The notes beneath the pieces were generated by a model. That model was not told the origin of the DNA. It worked only from the letters and a program-made list of their open reading frames with translations, and ran no database searches. A stretch of DNA of 64,000 nucleotides from Gemmata massiliana. Its GTDB lineage: Bacteria > Planctomycetota > Planctomycetia > Gemmatales > Gemmataceae. This document shows positions 27,957 to 47,748 of the stretch, in pieces (positions within the stretch are counted from its first letter, which is position 1; each line of letters begins with the position of its first letter). The stretch covers positions 1,302,001-1,366,000 of the forward strand of contig NZ_LR593886.1 of the NCBI RefSeq assembly GCF_901538265.1, written 5' to 3'. Both the position numbers and the translations under genes were made by a program.

Positions 27957-28226
27957 ACATTCCTCATAATTCCGGTCACGAGTGGAAGCCCCCTCGCGTT
28001 TAGGATCTTTGCGGATAATACCAGCCTACTTGCGCGTACACCACGCCAGACGAATGCGCCGGTTGTAAGCCCGCACAGATTGCCCGGTTTCAGCAGGTTC
28101 TCATATCTTCCCTCTTAAAATCAGTTACTCTCGAAACACCTCAGACTCGCCACAGGTACGACCACCACAGCCGCGGTGCAGCAACACGAGTTGAGCACAG
28201 GTGTTGAGCACAGGTACGGGGCCATC

Positions 28227-30075: not shown

Positions 30076-30407
30076 TGGAATTCGCGCTCGATCGTGATCG
30101 AAGAGTAAATGGCCCGGGTTTGGGTTGGGCGATCAAAAGTGAGCGAATGTTAGCCGCTATTAGCGGTTGGGGAGGGGCGAAACGGAGCCGAAATTGGCCC
30201 TAAAAATCGGTTAATTCAGCAGTTAGGATGGATTCCCACCCCCGCACGCTGTCGTGCCGCCCGGAAATGTCAGCGATTGTTACTAAAATGACGCAATGGC
30301 AGGCGAAGTAACGACTTAAGTCGCTATCGTCGTTGCGATCCGGTATCTGTCGTGAGTGCAAAGGTCCGAAGTCGTCTAAACGGAACAAACTGAGTACGAG
30401 CGATACC

Positions 30408-31714: not shown

Positions 31715-32191
31715 ATGATGCTGGCCACAACTCGCCGCGCCGCGATCCGCCCGGTTTCCCCCCGGCGCCGCTCCGCGTTCACCCTGATCGAAGTCCTCGT
31801 GGTGGTCGCGATCCTCGTGATCCTGGCGACCATCGCCGCGGTCGCCGTGCCCAAACAGCTCAACGAAGCGCGCAAGAGCCGGGCACAAATCGGGTGCGTG
31901 ACCATTGCTCGGGCTGCCGAGGCTTACCAAATCAATCAGGCGAACCCGGGGACGACCGACGACGAGCGCATGCCGCAGGGGATCAACGACCTGCTCAACC
32001 CGTCGTGGACCACGTCGTTCCTGCCGGAAGGTCAGGCCAGCGCGGTCGACCCCTGGGGGAAACAGTACAACCTGCAGATCCAGCAGCGCAACGACGGGAA
32101 CGGCTCGTACATTCTGGTCCACACGACCGCGCCGGACGGGACCGAAATCAGCCAGTTCGGTTTGGGTGCTAATTCCCGGCCCAAGAACTAA
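31715..32191 (+). CDS. gspG: Major pseudopilin GspG
   Basis: The protein has 158 residues with a 21-residue basic leader (RRAAIRPVSPRRRSA) before the class III signal FTLIEVLVVVAILVILATIA, including Glu5. Residue -1 is Ala instead of the usual Gly, which is unusual but tolerated by some prepilin peptidases. The C-terminal part (DPWGKQYNLQIQQRN) matches the GspG calcium-binding region: DPWG and a following loop. It would form the pseudopilus shaft. No prepilin peptidase gene is in the window. Confidence 0.9.
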   Translation: MMLATTRRAAIRPVSPRRRSAFTLIEVLVVVAILVILATIAAVAVPKQLNEARKSRAQIGCVTIARAAEAYQINQANPGTTDDERMPQGINDLLNPSWTTSFLPEGQASAVDPWGKQYNLQIQQRNDGNGSYILVHTTAPDGTEISQFGLGANSRPKN

Positions 32192-32226: not shown

Positions 32227-32772
32227 GTGTTGATCCGCCCCGTTACTCGCCGCGGCTTCACCCTGGTTGAAGTGGTCGTCGTCATGGCGATCCTGATCCT
32301 GCTCGCGGCCGTTGTGCTGCCCAGTATCGGGGTGTTCCGTGGCGACTCGCGCCCGCGGGCCGCGGCGGACGTGATCCGCTCTGAGCTGGCCGCGGCCCGC
32401 GGGCGCGCAATGATTGAGGGGCGCCCGTACCGGATCGCGATCGGGTCCAACGGCGATCGCATTCGCCGCGCCCCGGACGGGGCCGATTTCGCTGAGGCCA
32501 CGGCGTTCGACCGCACCGACGGGAACGCCGCGACCGTTGAATACGCCTTTGAAAACGCCGCCGCGGAACTCCTCTCCTCCCCCTCCGTGGCGTCCGACTC
32601 GGACGGTACCTGGACCACGATCGCCGTCGTCCTGCCCAACGGCACGTGCCTGGACGACAACATGGTCGTCGGCGTGCGCGACAAGGAAAAAAACGACGCC
32701 CCGCTCCGGGTCCAGATCCGCGGATTGACCAGTACGTCCCGCGTACTACCCGCCGGCACGGAGGTCCGCTGA
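32227..32772 (+). CDS. Minor pseudopilin, GspH-like
   Basis: The protein has about 181 residues; start GTG 32227, with TTG 32230 equally possible. The leader VTRRG precedes FTLVEVVVVMAILILLAAVV with Glu5. The globular part includes VIRSELAAARGRAMIEGRPY, as in GspH. The position after gspG also fits. It overlaps the next gene by one base. It is expected to sit near the tip of the pseudopilus. Confidence 0.85.
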   Translation: MLIRPVTRRGFTLVEVVVVMAILILLAAVVLPSIGVFRGDSRPRAAADVIRSELAAARGRAMIEGRPYRIAIGSNGDRIRRAPDGADFAEATAFDRTDGNAATVEYAFENAAAELLSSPSVASDSDGTWTTIAVVLPNGTCLDDNMVVGVRDKEKNDAPLRVQIRGLTSTSRVLPAGTEVR

Positions 32773-33227
32773 TGCTCCCCCGCTCCGCTCCGCGCCGCGG
32801 GATCTCGCTCATCGAAGTCCTGCTCGCTCTGACGATCCTGGTGATCTCGCTGGCCGGGATCAGTCAACTGGTGGACATCGGCTCCGATCACGGGAACCAG
32901 GCCCGGGCCGCGACCCGCGGAACTCGGCTGGCGCAGGGGAAGATGGTCGAAGTCGAGGCGGGCGTCGTCCCCCTGACGAGCGAAGCGAGCGGTAATTTCG
33001 AGGGCGACGACGCGGCCTGGAAGTTCACGGTCAGCCCGGAACCGGCCGGCCCCCCGAACCTGTACACCGTGACCGTTCGCGTCTCCCGCGAAATCAAGGG
33101 TGAGACCTTCGAGATCGTGCTGACGCAGATGATATTCGACCCGACCGTGATGGGGTCCGCGGCCCAGGCCGAGCTCCCCCCAACAGACTCCACGACGACC
33201 ACCGGAACGGGAGGAACGACGCCGTGA
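32772..33227 (+). CDS. Minor pseudopilin, GspI-like
   Basis: The protein has 151 residues from ATG 32772, sharing the A of the previous TGA. The leader ends APRRG, then ISLIEVLLALTILVISLAGI with Glu5. The Val-rich region TVTVRVSREIKGETFEIVLT resembles GspI. A short Thr/Gly tail (TTTTGTGGTT) is odd for this family. Overlap with the next gene indicates one transcript. Confidence 0.85.
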   Translation: MLPRSAPRRGISLIEVLLALTILVISLAGISQLVDIGSDHGNQARAATRGTRLAQGKMVEVEAGVVPLTSEASGNFEGDDAAWKFTVSPEPAGPPNLYTVTVRVSREIKGETFEIVLTQMIFDPTVMGSAAQAELPPTDSTTTTGTGGTTP

Positions 33228-34408
33228 TGCTCCGCTCTCGACGTGCCCGCTCGCTCCGCCGGGCGGGGTTCACGCTCCTCGAAATCCTCCTCGCGACCGT
33301 GCTCGCCACCCTGCTACTCGCCGCGCTGTACGCGATGATGTCCGTGACGCTGCGCCAGACGCAGAGCAGCCGCGACGCGAGCGAACTCGAGGATCTGTCG
33401 CGCGGGATCTTCAACAAGATGACCGTGGACCTGAACGGCACGCTCGCCCCGCTCCCGCCGCGCTCCGGTGGGAACCCGCTGGCGAGTACCACGAGCGGGT
33501 CGACCGGCACGAGTACCGGGACTTCGGGCACGACCACTCCAAGTGCCACGACTGGTTCTAGCGGCTCTGCCGCTCAGTCAGCCAGTACGACGTCCACACC
33601 CGCGACGGGAACCGCAACTGGCGGGGCTGCAACAACTTCGACGGACACGGAAACCGATAACCCCAACCCAGGGGCCGCGGATTTCTCGTTCCAGGGCGGC
33701 GTGGCCGGGTCGGAGAAGCAGATGGTGGTGTTCTCCGGGCGCGTGCCGGAAGTGTTCGGCCGGTTCGGGAACCCGGGCGAGCAGATCCGCGCCGACCAGC
33801 GCCAGATCATTTACTGGGTCGGTCCGAGCGGCGGGTTGTACCGACAGGAGCGCCCGTGGGTGACCGCAGACGGTGTGCGCAACTCGCTCGATCCCGACCC
33901 GGAAGCGCCCGACGCGGTGCTCATCGCCGAGGAAGTGTCCGACGTGACCTTCGAGTACACCGACGGTACGAGTTGGGCCACGGACTGGGACGGCACGGTG
34001 CCCGGTCCGGACGGCGTGACCCCACTCGGCCCGCCTCGTGCGATCCGCGTCACGCTCGTACTCAAGGTTTCCACGGGCAAGAGCAACGAAACGGTCGAGA
34101 AGAGCCTGACCCAAGTGATCGCGGTTCGGTCGGCGCCCGGTACTAACACCCCACCGCTCGTCACGCCGCCGGTCGACGGCGCGACCGACACGTCGAGCGG
34201 AACAACGAGTGGGACGACGGGCAGCAGTTCTGGGACGGCGGGCAGTACGGGTAGCTCGGGCGGCAGTACCGGCGGGGCGAGTAGTTCGGGCGGCACCACG
34301 AGCAGTCCGTCTTCGGGGAGTTCGGGCGGGACGAAACAGAGTGCCGGCACCTCCGGGGCGTCGATGAGCAGCGGATCGACGGGCGGCAAGAGCGGAGGCG
34401 GGAAATGA
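33227..34408 (+). CDS. Minor pseudopilin, GspJ-like, with low-complexity Ser/Thr/Gly segments
   Basis: The protein has about 393 residues; ATG 33227 shares the last base of the previous stop, and GTG 33224 is an alternative. The leader ends SLRRAG, then FTLLEILLATVLATLLLAAL with Glu5. The globular GspJ-type part includes QRQIIYWVGPSGGLYRQERP (about residues 190-210). Two disordered stretches rich in Ser, Thr and Gly interrupt it: residues about 85-145 and the last 80 residues. The usual length is about 200, so this is nearly double. The last four bases overlap the next gene. Confidence 0.85.
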   Translation: MLRSRRARSLRRAGFTLLEILLATVLATLLLAALYAMMSVTLRQTQSSRDASELEDLSRGIFNKMTVDLNGTLAPLPPRSGGNPLASTTSGSTGTSTGTSGTTTPSATTGSSGSAAQSASTTSTPATGTATGGAATTSTDTETDNPNPGAADFSFQGGVAGSEKQMVVFSGRVPEVFGRFGNPGEQIRADQRQIIYWVGPSGGLYRQERPWVTADGVRNSLDPDPEAPDAVLIAEEVSDVTFEYTDGTSWATDWDGTVPGPDGVTPLGPPRAIRVTLVLKVSTGKSNETVEKSLTQVIAVRSAPGTNTPPLVTPPVDGATDTSSGTTSGTTGSSSGTAGSTGSSGGSTGGASSSGGTTSSPSSGSSGGTKQSAGTSGASMSSGSTGGKSGGGK

Positions 34409-36084
34409 AAATGCACCGTCACTCGCGCTCGGTTAACGGTTCGGGCGCTTCGGGCCGGCGCGACGGGTACGTCATCTTCGCCGTGCTCATTGTCATCGTC
34501 GTCCTGTCGCTGGTCGCGTACCGGTTCACCGCGGCAATGACGGCGGAAGCCCAGGCCAGCGCCCGTGCCCGCGACGACGCCCAGGTCAAACTCGCGGCCG
34601 TGTCCGGGTTGCACTACGCCGCCGCGGTGCTCTCCGATCGCGACTCGTTCGTCAGCGAACTCGAAGGGAACCCGTTCGACAACTCGGACGTGTTCGAGCG
34701 CGTGGAAGTCGCGGCGAGTGGGAACAGCCGCCGGACCGCGTACTTCGACATCCGCTCCGTGGCCCGCCTGGACGGGGGCACCTACGAGCAGCGGTTCGGG
34801 GCCATCGACGAGGGCGGCAAGATCAACATCAACAGCATGATCGTGCTCGACCCCACCGGTAACCTGCTTTACAACGCGCTGATGCAGCTCCCCAACATGA
34901 CCGCCGACGTCGCCGACGCGATCGTGGACTGGGTGGACGCGGACGACGTCCCGCGGGCCAGCGGTGCGGAGTCGTCGGAGTACCAGTCGCTCCCGAGCCC
35001 GTACAAGGCGAAGAACGGCCCGCTCAACTCGCTCGACGAGTTGTTGCTCGTTAAGGGCGTCACCCCGGACCTGCTCTACGGCGGCGACCGGAACCGGAAC
35101 GGCACCTACGACGACGGCGAGAGCGGCACCAGCGACCTCGGCTGGTCCGACTTCCTCACGGTCTACGGGCGCGAACTGAACTTGGACTCGACCGGCACCG
35201 TGCGCGCCTACCTCAACGGCGAACTGGACACGATGCTACCGCAACTCACGTCGTTGCTCGGGGACGATCTGGCGACGTACATCATCGCGTACAAGATGTT
35301 CACCGCGACCAAGACGGACGCCAACGGTAACCCACAAACCACGACCACGACAACAGCCACGCTCTCAACGAACAGCGGTTCGGGGAGCGCGTCCGGGACC
35401 ATGACGGTGACCGTCACCGCAGCCCAGCCCCAAGCTCAGCAGAAGGGCGTACAAAAGGCGACTCTTGCCCAACTCCAGGCCGCGGTACAAACGCAGGGCG
35501 AAGCGAACGGCTGGACGGGCAAGAACAAGATCAACTCGGTCTTCGACCTGATCAACACCCGGATCACGCTCCCTCGCGCGAAGGACGCGAAACAGGACGA
35601 CCCCGACGTGGTCGCGTACTCGCCCCTGCTCGACGCCGCTACGCGGAACGACCTGCTCGCGTCGCTGATGGACAAAACGACGGTAACCAAGGACGTCGAG
35701 ATGACCCCGCGGATCAACGTGAACACCGCGCAGCGCGAGGTGCTCCTCGGCGTCCCGGGCATGACCGAAGAGTACGCCGATACGATCATCAACACGCGGG
35801 GCGACCAGGCACAAACCGATGCAGCGACCCTTTCGGGCGCGTGGCTCATTACGGTCGCCAACATCCCGCCGGCCACGTTCCAGCAGATGGAAAAGTACGT
35901 GACCGGCACCGCGATGGTGTACCGCGTGCAGTCGATCGGGTACCTGGGCGGCAACAACGGGCCGGTGGCCCGGATGGAAGCCGTCATCGACACGAACCAG
36001 GGCGCCCCGCGGTTCCTCCACATCCGCGACCTGACGGATTTGGAGAACCCGCGCGGGTTCGACCCGACGAAAACGAGCCAGTAA
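34405..36084 (+). CDS. gspK: Minor pseudopilin GspK-like
   Basis: The protein has 559 residues from ATG 34405 (ATGA overlap). A basic leader ends SGRRDG, followed by YVIFAVLIVIVVLSLVAYRF without Glu5, as is normal for GspK. The helix-hairpin domains are visible: FGAIDEGGKININSMIVLDP, DAIVDWVDADDVPRASGAES with the calcium-site pattern, and MTPRINVNTAQREVLLGVPG. A Thr/Ser/Gly segment of about 45 residues (near 308-345) is inserted. GspK caps the pseudopilus tip. The protein is about 200 residues longer than usual. Confidence 0.9.
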   Translation: MKMHRHSRSVNGSGASGRRDGYVIFAVLIVIVVLSLVAYRFTAAMTAEAQASARARDDAQVKLAAVSGLHYAAAVLSDRDSFVSELEGNPFDNSDVFERVEVAASGNSRRTAYFDIRSVARLDGGTYEQRFGAIDEGGKININSMIVLDPTGNLLYNALMQLPNMTADVADAIVDWVDADDVPRASGAESSEYQSLPSPYKAKNGPLNSLDELLLVKGVTPDLLYGGDRNRNGTYDDGESGTSDLGWSDFLTVYGRELNLDSTGTVRAYLNGELDTMLPQLTSLLGDDLATYIIAYKMFTATKTDANGNPQTTTTTTATLSTNSGSGSASGTMTVTVTAAQPQAQQKGVQKATLAQLQAAVQTQGEANGWTGKNKINSVFDLINTRITLPRAKDAKQDDPDVVAYSPLLDAATRNDLLASLMDKTTVTKDVEMTPRINVNTAQREVLLGVPGMTEEYADTIINTRGDQAQTDAATLSGAWLITVANIPPATFQQMEKYVTGTAMVYRVQSIGYLGGNNGPVARMEAVIDTNQGAPRFLHIRDLTDLENPRGFDPTKTSQ

Positions 36085-36135: not shown

Positions 36136-37752
36136 GTGTCCAATTTTATCGCGATCGACCTGGAACCCAACGGCGTGTTCGCCGTCGCCGGTGCCGCGCG
36201 CGGGGCCGTCAAGGTGACCCACGCGACCGCGTGGACCGGGGCCGACGGGGAGCCGCCGCCGGCGCTCACGCTCGATACCGCTCGGGCGTTCGGCGAGGCG
36301 CTCCGGGCGAAGCTCCGGGCCGCCGGCGCCCCGGTCGCGCCCGTGCTCGTTTCGGTCGGCCGCGACCGGGTCATTCTCAAGGAACTGAAGCACCCGCCGG
36401 TGCCCCCGCGCGAAGAACCGGCCATCATCAAGTTCCAGGCCATCAAGGAGATGTCCGAGTCGCCCGACGACGTGGTGCTCGACTACGTTCCGCTGAGTAA
36501 CGGCACCGGCGGTGACCCGACCGCCGACCGCCGGGCGATGGCCGTAATGCTCCGCAAGGACGTGTTCAACGCGATCCAGGCGATGTGTACCGCCGCCGGG
36601 CTGAAGCTCACCGGCGTCACCCCGCGCCCCTACGCGGTGGCCGCCGGGTTGGGCCGGGTGTTCGCCACGGGCGCGGCCCCGGCCCCCGAACACAAGACCG
36701 ACGCGGTCGCGGCCCTCACCCTCACCCCCGTTGGGGGCGAATTTACCGTCGTGCGCAGCGGCGAGACGATCCTGACGCTGGCGATCCCCAGCCCAGTGCT
36801 GGCGAACGAGAACATGCTCGTCGCGCAGTTGCGCCGGAACCTCACCGTCTACGCCGGCCAGCACCCGGGGCACCCGATTCAGGCGCTGTACCTCGCGGAA
36901 GTCGGTCCGGGCTGGACCGCCCGCCTCTCTTCGGCCCTCGGCGTGCCGGTTCACGCCTACGACCCACTCGCCGGGGCGCTGCCGAGCGTTCCCGAACACC
37001 TCCGCGGGCGCTTCGCCGGGGCCGTCGGGTTGCTCGCGGGCCAGGCCCACGGACCGCTGCCGATCAACTTCGCCGCGCCGCGGCAACCGACAACCGATCG
37101 CGACCCCGCGAAGCGGCGCATCGTGATCGCGGCGATCGCGGCCGCCGTTCTGCTCGCCGGGGGCGCCGTCTTCGGTTACATGGTGACGAGCGAGGCCGAT
37201 GCCCGGGTCGCCGACCTGACCCGAGAACGGGACGAACTCAAGGAGAAGCTCGAGAAGGGCAAGGCGGTCGCGACCGGCGCGACCGCGATCGAGAACTGGT
37301 CCAACCGCGAAGTGGTGTGGCTCGACGAGCTACACGACCTCGCCCACCGGATGCCCGCCGACGACAGCATGCGCCTCATGAGCCTCTCCGCGACCCCGTA
37401 CCCGGTGGTCAAGGACAAGCAAGAGGCGCAATCGCGGCTGGAACTGAAGATCGCCGCAACGGACGCCCGGCCGGTCAACAATCTGGTGTCCGCCACGGAA
37501 CGCGATAACTCACCGACGAACCGGTTCTATGTGAACTCTCCCGTGAGCGTCCTCGGCACGCTCCCCGCGAGCGCGGGCAAGTACACGCAAGGGTTCGGGC
37601 TCGTCACGAAGATCAACCACCGCGCGCCCGAAAAGTACACCGCGCGCCCGCCCTTCATGCCGCCGAAGCGGAGCTGGGGGCTGTTCACCCCGGCCCCCGA
37701 GAACTCGGCCGAACTCGCTCCCCCGCCGTCCGAAGGGAAGTCGGCCCCGTAA
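36136..37752 (+). CDS. GspL-like assembly protein (PilM/PilN-like domains in one chain)
   Basis: The protein has 538 residues from GTG 36136. The N-terminal 320 residues have an actin-like PilM/GspL cytoplasmic fold: SNFIAIDLEPNGVFAVAGAA, VLVSVGRDRVILKELKHPPV and LRRNLTVYAGQHPGHPIQAL. A membrane helix (VIAAIAAAVLLAGGAVFGYM, about 327-349) is followed by a coiled coil (LTRERDELKEKLEKG) and a PilN-like periplasmic domain. This domain order matches GspL. It would anchor GspE to the inner-membrane platform. The C-terminal 30 residues are Pro-rich. Confidence 0.85.
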   Translation: MSNFIAIDLEPNGVFAVAGAARGAVKVTHATAWTGADGEPPPALTLDTARAFGEALRAKLRAAGAPVAPVLVSVGRDRVILKELKHPPVPPREEPAIIKFQAIKEMSESPDDVVLDYVPLSNGTGGDPTADRRAMAVMLRKDVFNAIQAMCTAAGLKLTGVTPRPYAVAAGLGRVFATGAAPAPEHKTDAVAALTLTPVGGEFTVVRSGETILTLAIPSPVLANENMLVAQLRRNLTVYAGQHPGHPIQALYLAEVGPGWTARLSSALGVPVHAYDPLAGALPSVPEHLRGRFAGAVGLLAGQAHGPLPINFAAPRQPTTDRDPAKRRIVIAAIAAAVLLAGGAVFGYMVTSEADARVADLTRERDELKEKLEKGKAVATGATAIENWSNREVVWLDELHDLAHRMPADDSMRLMSLSATPYPVVKDKQEAQSRLELKIAATDARPVNNLVSATERDNSPTNRFYVNSPVSVLGTLPASAGKYTQGFGLVTKINHRAPEKYTARPPFMPPKRSWGLFTPAPENSAELAPPPSEGKSAP

Positions 37753-37826: not shown

Positions 37827-39482
37827 ATGACCCCACGCGACCAAAAACTGGCCCTCATTCTCATCGCAGTCATGGTACTGGGCGTCGGCGGTGCCGGCGG
37901 GTACCTGTTGGTCTGGTCGCCGCTCGAGGACCAGCGCAAGGCCGAGCTAGTGCTCCAAACAGAGATTAGCGAGCTCAAGGGCACCGAACAGAAGCAAGCG
38001 ACCAGCGCCAAGTACCTGGCCGCCGCTCGCGCGCGCAGCCTCCCGGCCGATTCGGACCTGGCCCGGAACGAGTACGGCGTTGCCCTCGGGCGCCTGCTCG
38101 ACGCGGCCGGCGCCCCAAAGGGGTACATCATCTCCATGAAACCGGACTCGGGCAACAGCGCCAAGCAGGTGCCCGAGATCTCGAAGGGCAAGCCGGCCTA
38201 CACGCGCATCGTCTGCACGGTGCAGATCAAGAAGGCCGACATGTGGGTCGTCAAGGACTTTCTCAAGGGGTACTACGACCTCGGGCTGCTCCACCAGATC
38301 ACGCACTTCAGCATCAAGAAAGAGGACGAGGGCGCGAAGAACGCGACCAAGCGGAACGACCTCACGGTGGACCTCACCACCGAAGCCATCATCATGGACG
38401 GGGCGGAGAACCGCCGGACGCTGCTCCGCATCCCGAATTCATACGGGGCGGCCGGGGGCGGCGGGCTGTACGCGGGCATGACGACCCAAAAAGAGTACGG
38501 GCGCGGGGTCACCCCCCAGGTGCCGAAGTCGGTGCTCGCCGCGGGCCGGGACTACAGCCTGATTGTGCTGAAAGACCCGTTCAACGGGCCGCTCGCCCCG
38601 CCGCCGCCCTTCAAACTCTCCCCGATCAAAGACGTGAAGATCGTTCAAGACGAGAGACCGTCGCCGGTCAAGGTCGCGGTCAGCGGCGAGGGGGCGCAGG
38701 GGACGAAGGTCACGGCCACCGCGTCGGGCAAGGTGTTCGCCGAGGGCGCCCTCAAGGTCGATCCCAAGACGCTCGCCATCGAGTTGCCCAAAACCTCCGC
38801 CGGTGAAGGCACCGAGACCATCTCGGTCGTCGCGGTCTCCGCCGACGGTAAGGTCGAGAAGACCTCGTTCAAGGTCACCGTTGAAGCGGCGCAGGCGAAA
38901 ACGGTAGTTGACAATCGGGATGAAGTGTCCGGTGCCATATTCCTGACAATGGTCACGTTCCGCTCCGACGGTACCGCTTGGGCGCGGATCTTTGATAGCG
39001 CGAGTCGACTCCGCTACGAGATTGACGCTAAGCCCACCGGCGTGAGTGTCGTGAAGGAGTGGATCCCGTCCGCCAAGAGCGGGTGGCGCCCGGACCTGGA
39101 CCATAAGCACCCACCGGGTGTGATCGTGCTCTCGGACGAAGGGGTCAAAACGCACCGCACGTTTCAGATCGTCGGCGTGGATTTTGAGGGCCTGATAATC
39201 GCCGATTTGAAGCCCAACGAACCGGCACCCTCAAAACCTAAAGGCACAAGTGGGTTCTCCAAAGGCGGGGTGCCTAAACCGGGACCAACCAACCCGCTCA
39301 CGGCCGTCGCGGGGAACGTGGCCGTCGGGGTCGCGGTCGCACCGCCCAAACTCTACCGCTGGACGGTCGGTCAGTCACTCGCGACAATCAAGCAGATACC
39401 AGATTCAGAGGCGCAGAAAATCCTCAAGCAGGCCGCGGACAGTGGCCCCATGTTTGAAGTAGCCGCGGCTGGTAAGGAGTGA
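37827..39482 (+). CDS. PilO/GspM-like protein with a large C-terminal extension
   Basis: The protein has 551 residues from ATG 37827. One membrane helix near the N-terminus (LALILIAVMVLGVGGAGGYL), a coiled coil (LVLQTEISELKGTEQKQ) and a PilO/GspM-like ferredoxin region (YTRIVCTVQIKKADMWVVKD) fit the position after GspL. Residues about 250-551 form an added region with beta-rich, Pro-containing segments (VAVSGEGAQGTKVTATASGK), and a second part that could resemble PilP/GspC. If so, it would contact the secretin. A terminator hairpin follows directly. Confidence 0.75.
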   Translation: MTPRDQKLALILIAVMVLGVGGAGGYLLVWSPLEDQRKAELVLQTEISELKGTEQKQATSAKYLAAARARSLPADSDLARNEYGVALGRLLDAAGAPKGYIISMKPDSGNSAKQVPEISKGKPAYTRIVCTVQIKKADMWVVKDFLKGYYDLGLLHQITHFSIKKEDEGAKNATKRNDLTVDLTTEAIIMDGAENRRTLLRIPNSYGAAGGGGLYAGMTTQKEYGRGVTPQVPKSVLAAGRDYSLIVLKDPFNGPLAPPPPFKLSPIKDVKIVQDERPSPVKVAVSGEGAQGTKVTATASGKVFAEGALKVDPKTLAIELPKTSAGEGTETISVVAVSADGKVEKTSFKVTVEAAQAKTVVDNRDEVSGAIFLTMVTFRSDGTAWARIFDSASRLRYEIDAKPTGVSVVKEWIPSAKSGWRPDLDHKHPPGVIVLSDEGVKTHRTFQIVGVDFEGLIIADLKPNEPAPSKPKGTSGFSKGGVPKPGPTNPLTAVAGNVAVGVAVAPPKLYRWTVGQSLATIKQIPDSEAQKILKQAADSGPMFEVAAAGKE

Positions 39483-39985: not shown

Positions 39986-42900
39986 ATGGGTCAGCGTCGC
40001 GGCTCGCAGGCGCGAGCAGTTCCGTTCTGGAAGCTCCTGAAGCTCCGCAAGTGGCTGCCCGGCGTACTGGCCGCAGCCGCCGGGCTGACCGGGCCGGTCG
40101 ATCGCGCCCTGGCTCAGCCCGTCCCGATGTCGGTCCCCGGAGCCCCCGGCGCTGTCGCGCCGGTGGCCCCGTCTGCACCCGCGATTCCCACAGCGCCCGC
40201 GAAGACGGTCAGCATCCACTTCGAGAAAGCGCGCTGGGAAGACGTACTCGATTGGTACTCCAAAGAAACTGGCCTGACACTTATCACCACGGTCCACCCG
40301 ACCGGAACGGTCAACATCAAGCCGGGCAAGGACCGGAAGTTCACCATCGGCGAAGTCACCGACCTCATTAATGAGGCGATGATGCAGCAGAAGTTCATTC
40401 TGATTCGTCGGCACATGACGTTCTTCATCCAGCCGTCGGACGAGAAGATCGACCCGACCCTACTCCCGCGCGTCACGCTCTCCGAACTTCCGGAGCGCGG
40501 GCGCACCGAGATCGTGCAGGTCGTGGTGCCCGTCGAGGGGATGGTGGTCGAGGACGCGACCGAAGAGCTGAAGAAGCTCCTCACGCCCTTCGGCACGATG
40601 GTGCCGCTGACGAAGCCGAACGCGCTGCTGATCCAGGACACGGTCGGTAACATCGCCCGCATCCAGAAGACGCTCGACGACATCGTCGACAAGACCAAGG
40701 GCGCGGACTCCCTGAACCACGTGTGCGAGTACCGCCGGGCGCAGGAAATCGCGGAAGTTCTCAAGACGCTGATGTCCGACGCCACGACCCGGATCGACAT
40801 CACCGGCACCCAGCAGATGCCACAGACCTTCGATCCGCGCGGCGGTGGGGGGTGGGGCGGCGGTAGCGGTTGGGGCGGCGGTGACCCGCGCTGGAGCGGC
40901 GGGCCCGGTGGTAGCAGTGACCCGCGCCGCGGACCGGGCGGTCAACAACCGGTCGGCAGCGGGCGCGTGAAGACCGTGCAGATCGCGGTCGACGCCAAAC
41001 GCAATGCGATCCTCGTGACCGCCCCGCAGGATAAAATCGGGCTCGCCGAGAAGCTCATCAAGGAACAGGACAAGCCGGTGAAGCCGGGGGACGGCAAGAT
41101 CGTCGTCGGCGAACCGGTCCTCAAGACGTACACGGTCCAGGCCGGGGCCGCGGACCTCGCCAAGAACATTCAAGCCAAGTTCCCGTGGCTCCAGGCGATC
41201 GGCCTGCCGGCGCAGAACCAGATCCTGGTCGTCGCCTCGCCCGCGGACCACAAGGACGTGGAAAATTACCTCGGGCTCGGGGGCGGGCCGGGTACCGCCG
41301 CCACGGACCTGACGTTCATCCCGCTCAGCGCCTTGGACCCGGGCGAAGCGGCCGCCATCGTGACCAAAATCATGCCGACCCCGGCGGCCGGTGGACCCAC
41401 GGTCGAACCGGTCAAAACCGGTAACGTCGGGCTGATGGTAAAGGGCAGTTCGGCGCAGATTCTTGAAATCAAGAAGATCCTGATACTCAACGGCGAGACC
41501 AGCATCGGCACCGACACGATGCCATCGGGTCCGGCGCCCACCTCGCGCACCATCACCCTGGGCGGGAACACCAACGCCGCGGTCGTCGCCGAACTGCTCG
41601 GCCGCGCGATGGAGGGGATGGGCAAGAAGGTCATCATCAACGACCCGCTCAACCCGAAGCCGCCGGTGCTCCGCCCACCGGCGGGCGGACTGCCGCCCGG
41701 TAGCGAACCCGCACCGCGGCAGCCGGTCCCGGTACAGCCGGCCCCGACGAGGCCGCCGACCCTGGGCACCCGGGACCAACTGCCCGGCCGCGACTTCCTG
41801 ATTTCCGCGCAGATCAGTGACCCGGAAAAGAAGGACGATAAGCCGATCATCATCACGGTGACCGGCGGGAAGCTCCTCATCCAGAGCGACGACACGAAGG
41901 CGCTCGAGGTTCTTTCGCAACTGGCTCGGTACATCACCACCGAGGGCGCGAAGGCCGACGAGAACCTGTTCAAGGTGATCCGGCTGCGGTCCGTGTCCGC
42001 CGAGGACGCGGCGCGCGAGTTGACCGAGATCTTCAACGGCCCGCAGCAGCAACAGCAGGGGGGCAACCGCGGGCCGGGGGGGTTCAACCCACTGGCCCTG
42101 TTCGGCGGGCTCGGTGGCGGAGCCAACCAGACTCCGCCGGCCCCCGGGCGCGTCCGCGTCGTCGCGGAGCGGAGCAGCAACTCTGTAGTCGTGGTGAAGG
42201 CCAGCCCGCTCGACCTGGTGCTGATCGAGAAGCTGTTGGAGGGCGCAATCGATGGCGGCCCCAACGACTCTGCCGTGGTCATGAAGACGTACCGGATTCC
42301 GGTCAAGAACGCGGACGCGACCGAGGTCGCGCGGCAGATCCGGGAACTGTACCGCAGTGCGATGCTCCCGTCCGGGGGGCAGGCCGGCGGGCTCCCCGTG
42401 TTCAACCCGTTTGCCGCGGCCGCGCTCGGGGGCGGTGGTGGTGGGCAACAGCAGCAACAGCGCCCGCCGGCACTCTCGCTTACGGTGGACGACCGGAGCA
42501 ACAGTATCACGGTGGTCTGCACCGAGCCCATGTATCAGGATATCCGGGAGTTCGTCGGTCAGTTGGACAGCGCTACGATCAACACCACCGAAACGGTGAA
42601 GCTGGTCCAACTCAAGGGCATTGACCCGAACGTGGTCCAGCAGGCGATCAACGCCATGCAGGGCCGCGACACCCGCCAACAGCAGCAGGGCAACCGCGGC
42701 GGGTTCGGCGGGGGCGGCCCCGGTGGGTTCGGTGGTGGAGGCCAGGGCGGGTTCGGCGGGGGCGGCCCCGGTGGGTTCGGGGGCGGCGGATTCGGTGGTG
42801 GTGGAGCCGGTATGGGCGGTGGCGGGGGAACCCGTGGGGGAGGTGGCGGAGCAACCGGTGGCGGGGGAACCCGTGGGGGAGGTGGCGGGGGAGCCAGACC

Positions 42901-45900
42901 CGGCGGCGGGCGCCAGGCTAGCCTCGGCACGACGGAGGGCCCCTTAAATTTTGACTACCGGGGCACGGACGCCCCTTCGGCCGTCTCCAAGATCTACGAT
43001 CCGATGATTGACACGCCGGACTTCGGTTACAACCGACCGGCGAAACAGTCCAACGATGTCGTGCAGGTCGGTGCGCGCCAGCCGGAGCCGCCCGTTATTC
43101 CCGGCGGCGCACTGCCCCAAACGATGCCCCAGCCGCCGGTGCCACCCGGGTACGAGCGCCCGGGTACGCCGCCCGGAACCGGCGTGGCGGGTGGCCCCAC
43201 GGAATCGGCCCCGCGCGGCACGGTCACCGCGATCCCGATCACCGGGTTCGACGCTATCGTCATCCGCGCCCAAGACGCGCAGGACCTGGAACTCGTCCTC
43301 CAACTGATCGACCTCCTCCAGCGCCAGGGCAAGGAGGTTCAACCGAAGGTCGAGGTCGTTCGGCTCGAACACGGCGACTGCAACTACATCGCCGATGCGT
43401 TCAACGCCCTGCTCACCCGCGTCCAGATCGGGCAGAACGGGAACTACGTCCCGGCCGCCCGAACCGGGGTGACCTCGCCCGGGTTCGGGAACCAGGGCGC
43501 GCTCGGCGGCGCCGGGGCCGCGGGCTCGCAGAACGTCGGTGCCCTCGCGCTGCCGCGGTTCAACGCCGTGCTCCTCGTGGCGCCGGAAGCCCGCTTCGAG
43601 GACGTCAAGAAGGAACTGAAGCGCCTCGATCAGCCGAGCGGCGCGCCGCTCAAGGCGTTCCACTTGACGAACGCCTCCGCGCAAATCGTCGCGCAGCAGC
43701 TCCAGAACTTCTGGAACACGCGGTACCCGGGCGAGTCGCTCCAGCGGAACCAGTTCCGCGTCACGTTCGACATCGCCAGTAACACCGTGTTCATCCAGGG
43801 CAGCCCCAGCGACCTCAAGGACGCCGCCGAGCTGATCTCCCTGATGGACACGTCCGTGTCGAAGGCCGTCAACGACATGCGCGTGTTCCGCCTGAAGAAC
43901 GCGCTGTCCGACGAACTCGGCCAGGTGCTCAGCCAGGCACTGACCGCGAACGTGCTCAGCCAGCAGCCGCAACAGCAGTTCACCAGCCCGCTCGCGCAAA
44001 CGGCCGGGGGTCAAACGGCGTTCGGCGGGTTTACCACCCAGCAGCAGCAAGGGCAGCAAGGGCTGCAGAACCAAGTCGGGCAACAGCTCGGGCAGCAGAA
44101 CCAGATCGGGCAGGGGAACCAGGGCGGGTTGAACGGCGCCCAGCAGGTCCAGCAGATCAACGCTCTCATCCCGACCATCGGGACCGGCGGCGCGGGCGGT
44201 CTCCACACCAAGTCGACCGCGATCCGGTTCTACTCGGCGAAGGACGGGAAGACCTACGAGACCGGGTTCCTTTCGGACGTTCACATCGTCTCGAACGCCC
44301 GGATCAACGCCCTGGTCATCGCGGCCCCGACCGAGACGATGAAGGTGATCGAGCAACTGGTCGAAAGCCTCGACACGGTCGCGGCGGCCCGGTCCTACGT
44401 GAACGTGTTCCAGCTTTCTAAGGGAGCGGACGCAAACCTCACGGCGAACCTGATCGCCCAACTGTTCACCGGTCAGGGTCGGCAAGCGAACACCAACATC
44501 GGCACACAGGGGCTCGGGAACACCAACCAGGCGCGCCCGCTCCTGGTTCTCACCGGCAACCCGGCCGACGGAGCCTCGCTCATCGACCTGCGGTTGTCCG
44601 TGGACGACCGCACGAACAGCCTCATCGTGGCCGGCTCGCTCAACGATCTCGACACCATCCGCGCCATCATCGCGCGCCTGGAAGGGACCGACGCCCAGGC
44701 CCGGTACCACGAGGTCGTCAAACTGCGGAACGCCGCCGCCGCGGACGTGGCCACCGCCCTGCAAACGTTCTTCACGAATTCGCTCGCGGCCTACACGGGG
44801 GCGCAGTTCACCAGCGTCTACCAGCAGCTCCAGCGCAACGTGGTGGTGATCGCGGAGCCGGTGAGCAACACGGTGCTCATCGCCGCGACCCCGCAGTACT
44901 TCGGCGAGATCAAGCGGATCATCGACAAGATCGATTCGCAGCCGCCGCAGGTGGTGATCCAGGTGACCATCGCCGAAGTGCAGTTGAACAACACCGAAGA
45001 GGCCGGGGTGGAACTGGGGCTCCAGACCCCGGTGCTGTTCAACCGCGGCACGGGGCTGAACTTCAACACCACCGCCGCGCTGCCGAACGTGGCGGTCAGC
45101 GAAGGGACCGTCGGGTTCCAGGGGCTCGGGAACCTGGGCGTCGGGCGCACGTCTCCCACGCAGGGCGTCGGCGGGTTCGTGTTCTCCGCGTCCAGCGACA
45201 CGTTCAGCCTCCTGGTCCGGGCGCTCAAGGCGCAGGGCCGGGTGGACGTGCTCAGCCGCCCGCAGGTCCAGGTGGCGGACAACCAGACCGGGTACATGAA
45301 CGTCGGTCAGAAGTTCCCGGTCGCGACCGGGTCCACGATCACCAACGGGCTGTCCCAACAGGGGATCAACTACGTCGACATAGGGATCACACTCCAGGTC
45401 ACGCCGCGCGTGAACCCGGACGGCAAGGTGCTGATGCGGGTCGAGCCGACCGTGTCCAGCGTCCAACCCGGGTCCGTCAGCGTGGGCGGCATTCAGGCGG
45501 CCGTGTTCAACCAGCAAACGGTGCAGACGACCGTGCTCGCCTCCGACGGCGAAACGATTGTGCTCGGCGGGTTGATTAGCCGACAAGAGACCCGCAACGA
45601 GACCGGCATCCCGTACATGAAGGACATTCCTTACGTCGGGTCGCTGTTCCGGTACCGCACGCACACGCTCCAGCGGCGCGAGATCCTGGTGATCATGACG
45701 CCGCACATCGTCCGCAACGAGTACGACCAGGCCCGTATCCTGGCGGAAGAGTCGGCCAAGATGAAGTGGTGCTTGCCCGAAGTGGCCGCGGCGCACACCC
45801 ACGGGATGGAGGTCATGGGGCCGGCGTCCCAAGGCGCCCGTCCGGTTCCCGTGGGCGGACCGCAGGGCGGCGCTCAGCAACCCGCACCCGGCCCCGCGTA

Positions 45901-46573
45901 CTTCGGCACGTTCAACCCGATCCCGCTCGACGGAACCTCGGCGTACCAGCCCGGGGTCGCGCCGGGCACGCTGCAACCGGGCACGTTGCAACCGGCGTAC
46001 ATCCCGCCGAGTGCGCAACCGGGTGCGGTACAGCCGAATCACCTGATGCCGCCGGGCGGCGCGGCCATTCTGCCGATGGCGCCCCAGTCGATGCAATCGG
46101 GCACCCCGATGCCGGGGCAACCCATACCGGGAACGGGGACACTTCCTCCGCTCCCGGGCGCACCCGGAGCAATGGCCCCGCAACTGTGGCCGACCCAGCC
46201 CACCGCGGGCGTGATGCCGATCAGCGCGACTCAGCCGACGTTCGCGCCCCCGGCTTCAACTCAAGCGGTGGTGCAACCGGGCTTCGTGCAGCCAACGACG
46301 GCCCCGGTGTACCCGCAATCGATCCCGGTTCAGCCCGCACCGGTGGGTTACACGATGCAAGTGCCCGGTGCGCCGGTACAGCCCGTAGCGCCCCCCGGGG
46401 CACCGAACACCGCGGGGCGCGGGTTCACGATGGTCGGCGGTGCGCCCGCTCCGGCGGCACCCACTCAACCACAACCGGCAACGGGTAAGGACACCCCGCC
46501 GGCGGACAAGAAGCCGCTTCCCAAAACCACGGAGGGTACGCAATGGGGTACCGGAAACAACATCTTCCGTTGA
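39986..46573 (+). CDS. gspD: Giant type II secretion secretin GspD
   Basis: The protein has about 2195 residues from ATG 39986, which follows GGGGGA; an upstream frame from 39881 does not add a signal peptide. A signal sequence (LPGVLAAAAGLTGPVDRALA) leads to an N0-like domain (residues about 71-152: VSIHFEKARWEDVLDWYSKE). From about 170 to 1650 there are roughly 11-13 N1-type modules, each with the pattern 'hydrophobic strand, LKxxxAxE, two helices, then V..NAxLVxAP'. A Gly-rich stretch (GGFGGGG repeats, about 892-975) interrupts the series. The secretin core is near 1652-1915 (PPQVVIQVTIAEVQLN, VDVLSRPQVQVADNQTGYMN, VLASDGETIVLGGLISRQE). A Pro/Gln-rich tail of about 270 residues ends the protein. 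Usual GspD length is 650-750. It would form the outer-membrane channel. Confidence 0.93.
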   Translation: MGQRRGSQARAVPFWKLLKLRKWLPGVLAAAAGLTGPVDRALAQPVPMSVPGAPGAVAPVAPSAPAIPTAPAKTVSIHFEKARWEDVLDWYSKETGLTLITTVHPTGTVNIKPGKDRKFTIGEVTDLINEAMMQQKFILIRRHMTFFIQPSDEKIDPTLLPRVTLSELPERGRTEIVQVVVPVEGMVVEDATEELKKLLTPFGTMVPLTKPNALLIQDTVGNIARIQKTLDDIVDKTKGADSLNHVCEYRRAQEIAEVLKTLMSDATTRIDITGTQQMPQTFDPRGGGGWGGGSGWGGGDPRWSGGPGGSSDPRRGPGGQQPVGSGRVKTVQIAVDAKRNAILVTAPQDKIGLAEKLIKEQDKPVKPGDGKIVVGEPVLKTYTVQAGAADLAKNIQAKFPWLQAIGLPAQNQILVVASPADHKDVENYLGLGGGPGTAATDLTFIPLSALDPGEAAAIVTKIMPTPAAGGPTVEPVKTGNVGLMVKGSSAQILEIKKILILNGETSIGTDTMPSGPAPTSRTITLGGNTNAAVVAELLGRAMEGMGKKVIINDPLNPKPPVLRPPAGGLPPGSEPAPRQPVPVQPAPTRPPTLGTRDQLPGRDFLISAQISDPEKKDDKPIIITVTGGKLLIQSDDTKALEVLSQLARYITTEGAKADENLFKVIRLRSVSAEDAARELTEIFNGPQQQQQGGNRGPGGFNPLALFGGLGGGANQTPPAPGRVRVVAERSSNSVVVVKASPLDLVLIEKLLEGAIDGGPNDSAVVMKTYRIPVKNADATEVARQIRELYRSAMLPSGGQAGGLPVFNPFAAAALGGGGGGQQQQQRPPALSLTVDDRSNSITVVCTEPMYQDIREFVGQLDSATINTTETVKLVQLKGIDPNVVQQAINAMQGRDTRQQQQGNRGGFGGGGPGGFGGGGQGGFGGGGPGGFGGGGFGGGGAGMGGGGGTRGGGGGATGGGGTRGGGGGGARPGGGRQASLGTTEGPLNFDYRGTDAPSAVSKIYDPMIDTPDFGYNRPAKQSNDVVQVGARQPEPPVIPGGALPQTMPQPPVPPGYERPGTPPGTGVAGGPTESAPRGTVTAIPITGFDAIVIRAQDAQDLELVLQLIDLLQRQGKEVQPKVEVVRLEHGDCNYIADAFNALLTRVQIGQNGNYVPAARTGVTSPGFGNQGALGGAGAAGSQNVGALALPRFNAVLLVAPEARFEDVKKELKRLDQPSGAPLKAFHLTNASAQIVAQQLQNFWNTRYPGESLQRNQFRVTFDIASNTVFIQGSPSDLKDAAELISLMDTSVSKAVNDMRVFRLKNALSDELGQVLSQALTANVLSQQPQQQFTSPLAQTAGGQTAFGGFTTQQQQGQQGLQNQVGQQLGQQNQIGQGNQGGLNGAQQVQQINALIPTIGTGGAGGLHTKSTAIRFYSAKDGKTYETGFLSDVHIVSNARINALVIAAPTETMKVIEQLVESLDTVAAARSYVNVFQLSKGADANLTANLIAQLFTGQGRQANTNIGTQGLGNTNQARPLLVLTGNPADGASLIDLRLSVDDRTNSLIVAGSLNDLDTIRAIIARLEGTDAQARYHEVVKLRNAAAADVATALQTFFTNSLAAYTGAQFTSVYQQLQRNVVVIAEPVSNTVLIAATPQYFGEIKRIIDKIDSQPPQVVIQVTIAEVQLNNTEEAGVELGLQTPVLFNRGTGLNFNTTAALPNVAVSEGTVGFQGLGNLGVGRTSPTQGVGGFVFSASSDTFSLLVRALKAQGRVDVLSRPQVQVADNQTGYMNVGQKFPVATGSTITNGLSQQGINYVDIGITLQVTPRVNPDGKVLMRVEPTVSSVQPGSVSVGGIQAAVFNQQTVQTTVLASDGETIVLGGLISRQETRNETGIPYMKDIPYVGSLFRYRTHTLQRREILVIMTPHIVRNEYDQARILAEESAKMKWCLPEVAAAHTHGMEVMGPASQGARPVPVGGPQGGAQQPAPGPAYFGTFNPIPLDGTSAYQPGVAPGTLQPGTLQPAYIPPSAQPGAVQPNHLMPPGGAAILPMAPQSMQSGTPMPGQPIPGTGTLPPLPGAPGAMAPQLWPTQPTAGVMPISATQPTFAPPASTQAVVQPGFVQPTTAPVYPQSIPVQPAPVGYTMQVPGAPVQPVAPPGAPNTAGRGFTMVGGAPAPAAPTQPQPATGKDTPPADKKPLPKTTEGTQWGTGNNIFR
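42661..42912 (+). repeat. Gly-rich tandem repeat within gspD
   Basis: Short units of GGGTTCGG(C/T)GG(G/T)GG are repeated in tandem and code for GGFGGGG and GGGTRGGGG blocks. It marks an internal linker between two groups of N1 modules. Repeat number is likely to vary between strains. Confidence 0.9.
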
Positions 46574-47748
46574 TCGTGTTGGCGTCCGGGATGCTGGCCC
46601 TCGGTAGCGGCTGCACGACCACGGGCGCGACCGACGCGAAGAAGATCGAGTCGAAGAAGCCCGACGTGATGCAACCGGGCGTGCTGCCGCCGCCCCAGGA
46701 AACGACCCGCCCGGTGTCCGCTGTGGGACCGGGTGGGGCGGTGGTCCCGGCCTCCGGAACTACCACGGCTATGTCCGTGGGGAACCCGCAAGCGCCCGCG
46801 GAGCCCGCGTCGCCACTCACGAAACTGACCTCGCGCCCCGAGCGCAAGGTGGTCGCGACCGAGATGGCGGTGGGCTGGCAGAACCGGATCGCCTCGCTAC
46901 CGGACCCGGTGCGCGCCGGGCGCGTGAGTCCGGGCATCGTGGGCCAGATGTTCCTCTTCGGAGGGACGAAATTGGAGTTCGCCCAGGCCGACGGTACGCT
47001 CACCGTGGACCTGGTCGACGAGACCCCGCGCCAACCGGGGCAGCCCGCGGCCAAGCCCGAACGGTGGCAGTTCAGCAAGGAGATCTTGCGGAACTTGCAG
47101 GCCCGCGACGAAACGTTCGGGAAGAGCTACGTGCTGTTCCTCCCGTGGCCGTCGTACACGCCGGACGTCACGCGGGTGCGGATTTCCGCCCGTTACGACC
47201 CGGAGAACGGCCACACGCTGTTCTCGACGCCGAACAACATCACGTTCGACACGAGCGTGTCGCAAGACCCGCGCATGTGGGCCGAAAAGTCGAACGTGTC
47301 GACGCCGATTGTTCCCGGAAAGCCGCTCGGTGCCGGTTCAATGCCGGGGCTGGGCGGGGTGACGACGAGTGGCGTGATGCCGATTTCCGGCGCGGCGGGC
47401 GCGCCGATCCCGCTCGGCGGGGCGACGACGCCTGGCACGATGATGCCGATTCAGTCGAACGGACCGGCCCCAATGGTGCCCATCCCGCAGGGCGGCGCCA
47501 TGTTGCCGATCCAACCGAACGGTGCGGCCCCGATGATGCCGATTCAGCCGAACGGCGCCATGATGCCGATCCCGCCGGGTACGGTTCCGGCGGGTGCGCC
47601 GAGCACGGCTCCCGCAGCGCCGGTGGGTGTAGTTCCGGTAATTCCAGCGGCCCCAACGACCGTGGCTCCGACAGCGGCGCCCACGAACCCGGCGCCGCTG
47701 CCCGATGGGTTGCCCCCGCTCACCATCACGCTGCCCACGCGACAGTGA
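46543..47748 (+). CDS. Lipoprotein of unknown function, coupled to the secretin
   Basis: The protein has 401 residues from ATG 46543. The start lies 31 bases inside the end of gspD in another frame, so translation is probably coupled. A signal with lipobox-like LGSGC puts the lipidated residue at Cys24. The middle region (SRPERKVVATEMAVGWQNRI, TLTVDLVDETPRQPGQPAAK, LFLPWPSYTPDVTRVRISAR) looks like an exported beta-rich domain. The tail from about 270 is repetitive: MLPIQPNGAAPMMPIQPNGA. It may be a pilotin or accessory lipoprotein of the secretin, by location only. A strong terminator follows. Confidence 0.8.
   Translation: MGYRKQHLPLIVLASGMLALGSGCTTTGATDAKKIESKKPDVMQPGVLPPPQETTRPVSAVGPGGAVVPASGTTTAMSVGNPQAPAEPASPLTKLTSRPERKVVATEMAVGWQNRIASLPDPVRAGRVSPGIVGQMFLFGGTKLEFAQADGTLTVDLVDETPRQPGQPAAKPERWQFSKEILRNLQARDETFGKSYVLFLPWPSYTPDVTRVRISARYDPENGHTLFSTPNNITFDTSVSQDPRMWAEKSNVSTPIVPGKPLGAGSMPGLGGVTTSGVMPISGAAGAPIPLGGATTPGTMMPIQSNGPAPMVPIPQGGAMLPIQPNGAAPMMPIQPNGAMMPIPPGTVPAGAPSTAPAAPVGVVPVIPAAPTTVAPTAAPTNPAPLPDGLPPLTITLPTRQ

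What the first reader, a model, noticed from the sequence alone, without database searches (positions are those of the whole stretch)
39986..46573. Giant secretin with about a dozen N1-type modules
The protein is about 2195 residues while GspD is usually 650-750 with three N-domains plus N0. Counting by eye gives 11-13 N1-like modules and a Gly-rich linker before one normal secretin core. Stacked modules could form a long periplasmic tube suited to the wide, invaginated planctomycete periplasm. This would be a new architecture for protein export.
Basis: partly seen in the sequence, partly recalled or inferred. Interest (0 to 1): 0.8.

Follow-up and report, generated by a model that had tools for sequence, protein, structure and literature searches.

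The report
Giant multi-ring planctomycete secretin
A planctomycete bacterium, like nearly all its close relatives, makes an outer-membrane export pore carrying 14 stacking domains instead of the usual four, and more distant relatives carry up to about 50, so these bacteria may build unusually long, adjustable tubes across their wide cell envelope.

Summary
Window 39986-46573 encodes one 2195-aa secretin: signal peptide, N0, 13 N1-type modules, one secretin core, Pro-rich tail. AlphaFold shows N0 plus eight beta-alpha-beta-beta-alpha modules in the first half; profiles find the other five. One correction: the Gly-rich stretch (residues 895-985) is not just before the core but inside module 8, with five modules after it. 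The gene ends a T2SS-like operon (E-F-G-H-I-J-K-L-M-D) without GspC, followed by a conserved lipoprotein of unknown family.

It is not unique. All 32 Gemmatales genomes where both ends could be matched carry the single-chain form, and all 16 Gemmataceae sequences examined keep N0+13 one-to-one. In other Planctomycetia the stack is split over two ORFs; in clean cases the break falls inside module 8, at the Gly-rich stretch. Other planctomycetes reach 3269 aa (27-30 modules) and 4808 aa (about 49; Pfam alone counts 42). Proteobacterial GspDs give 2-3 with the same profile.

Best reading: an extended, probably two-segment trans-periplasmic ring stack, and a candidate for the planctomycete 'crateriform' outer-to-inner-membrane connectors. 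Domain architecture and distribution are shown; ring stacking, tube length and cellular identity are inferred. I found no description in the papers searched.

The parts
39986..46573 (+). giant secretin, 2195 aa, ATG to stop
   Evidence: Pfam; NCBIfam
39986..40192 (+). signal peptide (..LAAAAGLTGPVDRALAQ) and Pro/Ala linker, residues 1-69
   Evidence: sequence, by eye
40193..40465 (+). N0 domain, residues 70-160
   Evidence: AlphaFold; 4jtm N0 Z 10.6, rmsd 2.0 over 80 aa; PDB sequence match of N0-N1 to 4e9j/4ec5
40505..40693 (+). N1-type module m1, residues 174-236 (canonical N1 position)
40712..41083 (+). module m2 with Gly-rich loop insert, residues 243-366
   Evidence: GspD 5wq9 rmsd 1.1 over 59 aa, 30% id
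41117..41281 (+). module m3, residues 378-432
41297..41491 (+). module m4, residues 438-502
41537..41941 (+). module m5 with Pro-rich insert, residues 518-652
   Evidence: AlphaFold; conserved in Gemmatales
41960..42250 (+). module m6, residues 659-755
42281..42574 (+). module m7, residues 766-863
   Evidence: PilQ 6ve2 rmsd 1.9 over 60 aa, 32% id
42581..43333 (+). module m8, in halves m8a (beta1-alpha1) and m8b (beta2-beta3-alpha2), residues 866-1116
   Evidence: AlphaFold; split point of the two-ORF relatives
42668..42940 (+). Gly-rich stretch inside m8, residues 895-985 (60% Gly)
   Evidence: TRF; pLDDT mostly under 40
43340..43636 (+). module m9, residues 1119-1217
43643..43855 (+). module m10, residues 1220-1290
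43871..44380 (+). module m11 with Gln/Gly-rich loop, residues 1296-1465
44390..44689 (+). module m12, residues 1469-1568
44702..44941 (+). module m13 (canonical N3 position), residues 1573-1652
   Evidence: best Pfam Secretin_N stretch
44948..45730 (+). secretin core, residues 1655-1915
   Evidence: Pfam Secretin; PulD 6hcg E 2.4e-46 over 1537-1916
45731..46570 (+). Pro/Gln/Gly-rich C-terminal tail, residues 1916-2195
   Evidence: sequence; poorly conserved in alignment A1
46543..47748 (+). lipoprotein (lipobox LGSGC) overlapping the secretin stop; conserved next to the core-bearing secretin gene; Ig-like beta-sandwich model, pLDDT 87
28176..29993 (+). GspE-type ATPase
30333..31622 (+). GspF-type inner-membrane protein
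31715..32191 (+). GspG-like major pseudopilin
32227..32772 (+). prepilin-like protein (GspH position)
   Evidence: N_methyl
32646..33227 (+). GspI-like minor pseudopilin (true start probably internal)
33224..34408 (+). GspJ-like minor pseudopilin
34405..36084 (+). GspK with C-terminal helix-hairpin-helix (ComEA-like) domain
36136..37752 (+). GspL/PilM-like
37827..39482 (+). GspM-like, enlarged to 551 aa
   Evidence: (weak, E 0.0039) and position

Best explanation
The protein is the outer-membrane secretin of a GspC-less, T2SS-like machine. It keeps the normal ends (N0-N1 for the inner-membrane side, last N-domain plus core for the outer-membrane side) and lengthens the stretch between them with extra N1-type modules. 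SHOWN: one continuous gene; N0 + 13 N-type modules + one core; T2SS-like operon; the same 14 domains one-to-one in all Gemmataceae examined; in other Planctomycetia the same order divided between an N-protein (N0 to first half of m8) and a core-bearing C-protein; far longer stacks elsewhere in the phylum. INFERRED: the modules form coaxial rings as in GspD and PilQ, giving a trans-periplasmic conduit. At 2.5-4 nm per ring (scaled from Thermus PilQ, six rings plus core in 35 nm) it would be roughly 45-65 nm long. The Gly-rich break in m8 would divide it into an inner-membrane-side and an outer-membrane-side segment joined by a flexible joint or by half-domain complementation, which could suit a periplasm of variable width. 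A pseudopilus would run inside and export proteins or extrude fibres. MOST SPECULATIVE: it is the core of the 'crateriform' connectors between outer and inner membrane.
For: Domains: Pfam, own profile with controls, AlphaFold and fold matches to GspD N0/N1/N2 and PilQ, PDB sequence matches at both ends. Operon; T2SS genes around homologues in Gemmatales, other Planctomycetia and Phycisphaerales loci. Selection on number: N0 and m1-m13 each score in all 16 Gemmataceae proteins examined; N0-bearing and core-bearing ORF are the same in 32 Gemmatales genomes. Functional unity of the two halves: N- and C-proteins sit in one T2SS operon (L038/L037: N-protein-E-F-G-H-I-J-K-L-...-C-protein; L040: J-K-L-...-N-protein-C-protein, adjacent) and are fused in the window; N-proteins end in a half module and several C-proteins start with the other half. 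Length is evolvable: 3269 aa (L039) and 4808 aa (L081; 42 Secretin_N by Pfam); unit-wise gain/loss and a five-module duplication. Known N-domains stack as rings; Thermus PilQ is said to span most of its wide periplasm with six rings and has glycines in extra gate loops (PMC5745081). Crateriform structures link outer and cell membrane (PMC5394234).
Against: No oligomer, ring or tube was modelled or observed. AlphaFold mean pLDDT is 55 overall (mostly 70-88 in domains) from only five sequences, so relative domain placement is unknown. The lumen of internal membrane sheets in G. obscuriglobus averages about 19 nm (PMC3660258), too narrow for a straight 45-65 nm tube there. Crateriform pits are described as holding the membrane close to the wall, which does not obviously call for a long tube. 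Fifty rings (125-200 nm) strain the simple model. Long Gly/Gln-rich loops and the two-chain forms are compatible with flexible tethers.
Confidence: 0.6

Rival explanations
1. Only the outer-membrane-side block (m8b/m9-m13 + core) forms stacked rings; N0-m8a is a flexible, beads-on-a-string arm or a separate ring assembly that reaches the inner-membrane platform, so there is no continuous long tube.
For: 91-residue, 60% Gly stretch inside m8 with very low pLDDT; the chain is naturally broken there in some relatives; long disordered loops in most modules.
Against: Most modules follow each other with short linkers, as in ring-stacking secretins; m1-m7 are conserved one-to-one in Gemmataceae; extra glycine-containing loops form a gate in a known ring stack.
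Confidence: 0.22
2. The giant polypeptide is a precursor cleaved in the Gly-rich stretch to two mature chains, equivalent to the N- and C-proteins of other Planctomycetia (compatible with either structural model).
For: Position of the natural break in two-ORF relatives.
Against: No protease site or proteomic evidence; the fused form is found in all 32 testable Gemmatales genomes.
Confidence: 0.1
3. The machine is functionally a type IV pilus or DNA/polysaccharide-uptake system rather than a protein exporter (a question of function, not of the stack).
For: No GspC in the genome; GspK carries a ComEA-like HHH domain and GspL resembles the PilM-like Amuc_1101 family; fibres attach to crateriform structures and bind dextran (PMC5394234).
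Against: Gene order and best-scoring models are T2SS; the PilQ model TIGR02515 is below its cut-off.
Confidence: 0.35
4. Assembly or annotation artefact.
For: G415 shows how N-gaps in Gly-rich DNA break such ORFs.
Against: Orthologues of 1893-2442 aa in 32 genomes.
Confidence: 0.01

Closest known systems
GspD/PulD, type II secretion secretin (PDB 6hcg, 5wq7)
   Same: N0-N1 at the start, N-domain plus secretin core at the end, in a T2SS-type operon
   Different: N0+3 modules and about 650 aa, against N0+13 and 2195 aa here; no GspC found here; long Gly/Gln-rich loops; conserved downstream lipoprotein that matched no known family
Thermus thermophilus PilQ (N0-N5, six rings, 35 nm; PMC5745081)
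   Same: extra N-domain rings, glycine-containing loops, proposed to span a wide periplasm
   Different: type IV pilus secretin, 757 aa, six rings against 14 domains here; one chain
Deinococcus PilQ DR_0774 (PDB 8co1)
   Same: secretin that matches both the sequence and the N-domain model
   Different: 740 aa, so room for far fewer modules
Planctomycete crateriform structures (Boedeker 2017, PMC5394234)
   Same: outer-membrane complexes joined to the inner membrane and bearing fibres, in the same class of bacteria
   Different: protein composition not given in the papers read; the link proposed here is untested

Membership tests
Secretin superfamily | Secretin core (PF00263) | tested here: met
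   158 bits against cut-off 27.5, residues 1746-1910
Secretin superfamily | Secretin_N (N1-type) domains before the core | tested here: met
   Pfam 230.6 bits, 7 stretches; profile and AlphaFold, 13 modules
Secretin superfamily | 12-15-mer stacked rings | not testable with these tools
   single-chain prediction only
T2SS secretin GspD | TIGR02517 equivalog score | tested here: inconclusive
   434.9 against cut-off 351.35, but the whole-protein score sums 7 stretches of repeated N-domains
T2SS secretin GspD | operon with GspE,F,G,H,I,J,K,L,M | tested here: met
   but several members are below equivalog cut-offs (E 605/630, F 371/424), GspM is weak, GspH rests on position and N_methyl only
T2SS secretin GspD | GspC in the genome (mandatory in the T2SS model of Denise 2019, PMC6668835) | tested here: not met
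   no PF11356 match at E<=1 in the own genome; control genomes positive
T2SS secretin GspD | N0 plus three N-domains | tested here: not met
   N0 plus 13
Type IV pilus secretin PilQ | TIGR02515 score over cut-off | tested here: not met
   227 against 284
Type IV pilus secretin PilQ | AMIN domain at the N-terminus | tested here: not met
   no Pfam hit other than Secretin_N and Secretin at E 0.01
Crateriform structure component | localisation to crateriform outer-membrane pits | not testable with these tools
   needs tagging or knockout plus tomography

The most novel reading that the evidence does not exclude
Planctomycetota use secretins as an extendable construction kit: trans-periplasmic ring stacks of about 14 rings in Gemmatales and up to about 50 elsewhere, built from one polypeptide or from two that meet inside a single split N-domain, grown by whole-module duplication to match envelope width, and forming the crateriform membrane connectors.
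Probability: 0.3. Interest if true: 0.92.

Novelty: new variant of a known kind. Interest (0 to 1): 0.78.

Why it matters
Among the papers read, the secretin with most rings has six and is called one of the largest characterised. A phylum-wide family with 14 to about 50 modules, sometimes split across two chains inside a domain, gives a natural series for asking what sets secretin length, how a secretion machine spans a wide or invaginated periplasm, and how ring stacks grow in evolution. It also supplies a named, deletable candidate for the planctomycete crateriform structures, whose protein make-up the papers read leave open, and shows a machine that GspC-requiring T2SS surveys would miss.

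Tried and rejected
Artefact or unique oddity: rejected, orthologues in 32 genomes. 'Other Planctomycetia simply have shorter secretins': my first reading from the core-bearing ORFs alone; rejected once the N-proteins were found. A Gemmataceae genome with a split gene (G415): explained by N-gaps in Gly-rich DNA; the other four Gemmataceae exceptions have the two ends on different contigs. The split is not always exactly at m8: several C-proteins (families f4, f6, f8) carry their own N0 or extra modules in front, so the clean half-domain split is claimed only for pairs such as L040 and L036/L035. TIGR02517 score as proof of GspD: weakened because repeats inflate it (compare 1304 bits for L081). 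Lipoprotein as a known pilotin fold: Foldseek found only generic Ig-like sandwiches (no E <= 0.001) and VIA-align gave best Z 7.9, which is uninformative. Paper searches for giant secretins or planctomycete T2SS secretins returned nothing on point; only open-licence papers are held. No plasmid match for N0-N1.

Full report
WHAT IS THERE. The ORF at 39986-46573 (+) is open from ATG to stop, 2195 aa. Pfam finds one Secretin core (1746-1910) and seven Secretin_N stretches. A profile built iteratively from the window's own modules finds 11 modules. The controls are good: shuffles of the first 1655 residues never exceed 3.8 bits in 500 trials, and secretins of Proteobacteria and other phyla score mostly two or three modules, as they should. 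AlphaFold2 on residues 65-1122 with four Gemmataceae homologues gives N0 (beta-alpha-beta-beta-alpha-beta-beta) and then eight beta-alpha-beta-beta-alpha units, including m5 and m8, which profiles miss because of inserts between alpha1 and beta2. Foldseek's best matches are secretin N0-N1-N2 structures. VIA-align puts N0 on 4jtm (Z 10.6, 2.0 A over 80 residues), m2 on GspD (1.1 A over 59) and m7 on PilQ (1.9 A over 60). Sequence alone matches residues 77-266 to GspD N0-N1 and 1537-1916 to PulD. The protein is therefore a normal secretin at both ends with about ten modules added in between: N0 + 13 in all.

The Gly-rich stretch (895-985, 60% Gly) lies inside module 8, not directly before the core; the second half of m8 and five further modules follow it. 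The trait is not special to this genome.

SETTING. Upstream on the same strand lie GspE, GspF, a GspG-like pseudopilin, a GspH-position prepilin, GspI-like, GspJ-like, GspK (with an HHH domain), GspL/PilM-like and GspM-like genes. GspC was not found anywhere in the genome although the search found it in control genomes. Directly downstream, overlapping the stop codon, is a lipoprotein gene with no Pfam family. Homologues sit next to the core-bearing secretin gene across the phylum, including the giants of Phycisphaerales and the two-ORF systems. Its model is a confident Ig-like sandwich (pLDDT 87). A pilotin-like or outer-membrane-anchoring role is a guess from position.

DISTRIBUTION. In the class survey the core-bearing ORF is 1893-2442 aa in Gemmatales (contig-broken cases aside) and mostly 900-1500 aa elsewhere. 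Searching with N0-N1 instead shows why. In 32 Gemmatales genomes both ends lie in the same ORF. In most other Planctomycetia they lie in two ORFs: an N-protein with signal peptide, N0, m1-m7 and the first half of m8, ending in a low-complexity, usually Gly-rich tail, and a C-protein with the second half of m8, m9-m13 and core. In L038/L037 the two flank the T2SS operon; in L040 they are adjacent in the order of the fused gene. Some C-proteins carry additional N-terminal domains. Adjacent two-ORF pairs with 36-38 modules in all also occur in L068, L072 and L075.

EXTREMES. L039 (genome G039) is one chain of 3269 aa with 27-30 modules and a core. Seven loci, mostly labelled Phycisphaerales or Phycisphaeraceae, hold single chains of 4170-4813 aa with 40-49 modules and a core. 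Pfam alone counts 42 Secretin_N stretches in the 4771-aa translation from L081. Core-less N-proteins reach 3259 aa (L142, about 35 modules). In L081 modules 7-9 resemble modules 12-14 (43-59% identity), a five-module duplication, and L074 appears to lack about four modules relative to L081. Module number is thus fixed within Gemmataceae (14 of 14 domains in 16 of 16 proteins) and changes by whole modules between lineages.

MECHANISM. N-domains of known secretins stack as rings. Thermus PilQ has six and is 35 nm long, said to span most of a wide periplasm, with a gate made of glycine-containing extra loops. By the same logic 14 rings plus core would be roughly 45-65 nm (inference; 2.5-4 nm per ring). 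The break in m8 suggests a two-segment stack, one segment anchored at the inner membrane through N0 and one at the outer membrane through the core. Because N0-N1 and the last module plus core are kept, the platform and the gate need not change when the middle grows; only the pseudopilus must be longer. Crateriform structures of Planctopirus, described as connections between outer membrane and cell membrane with attached 12-nm fibres, with comparable fibres in Gemmata, are a natural place to look. Against a straight tube: internal membrane sheets in Gemmata have a lumen of about 19 nm, crateriform sites hold the membranes close, and 50-ring stacks would be 125-200 nm. No oligomer could be modelled here.

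MEMBERSHIP. It is a secretin (core, N0, N-domains met). It works like a T2SS secretin by operon and closest profiles, but I do not file it as a canonical GspD: GspC is missing, the N-domain number is not met, and the TIGR02517 score is inflated by repeats. It is not PilQ (below cut-off, no AMIN domain).

NOVELTY. None of the papers found describes these proteins. T2SS surveys that require GspC (PMC6668835) or that report very few T2SS outside Proteobacteria (PMC4793230) would pass over them. The search covered open-licence papers only, so prior mention in subscription journals cannot be excluded.

Noticed in passing
L137:3432-6530 (-), L139:2983-5127 (-), L140:1675-3483 (+); same genome as the window: Three proteins join an ECF sigma factor (Sigma70_r2 + r4_2), a hydrophobic segment and secretin N-type domains (L137 also two N0 domains): possible membrane-bound sigma factors that sense a secretin or its substrate.
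   Followed up: partly
L138:3211-4638 (-): 476-aa protein of the same genome with two N0-N1 units and no core or sigma domain; G010 has a 615-aa protein with three such matches.
   Followed up: no
window 46543-47748: Conserved lipoprotein directly downstream of core-bearing secretins across Planctomycetota, no Pfam family, predicted Ig-like sandwich.
   Followed up: partly
L142:4741-14517 (+), L141:2-7843 (-), L143:2048-9403 (+): Core-less N-proteins of 3259, 2614+ and 2452 aa with N0 and about 24-35 N-type modules.
   Followed up: partly
window 34405-36084: GspK carries a C-terminal helix-hairpin-helix domain like ComEA, which hints at DNA binding in a T2SS-like machine.
   Followed up: no
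L146:3258-5849 (-); same genome as the window: 864-aa ORF with two secretin-core matches in one frame.
   Followed up: no
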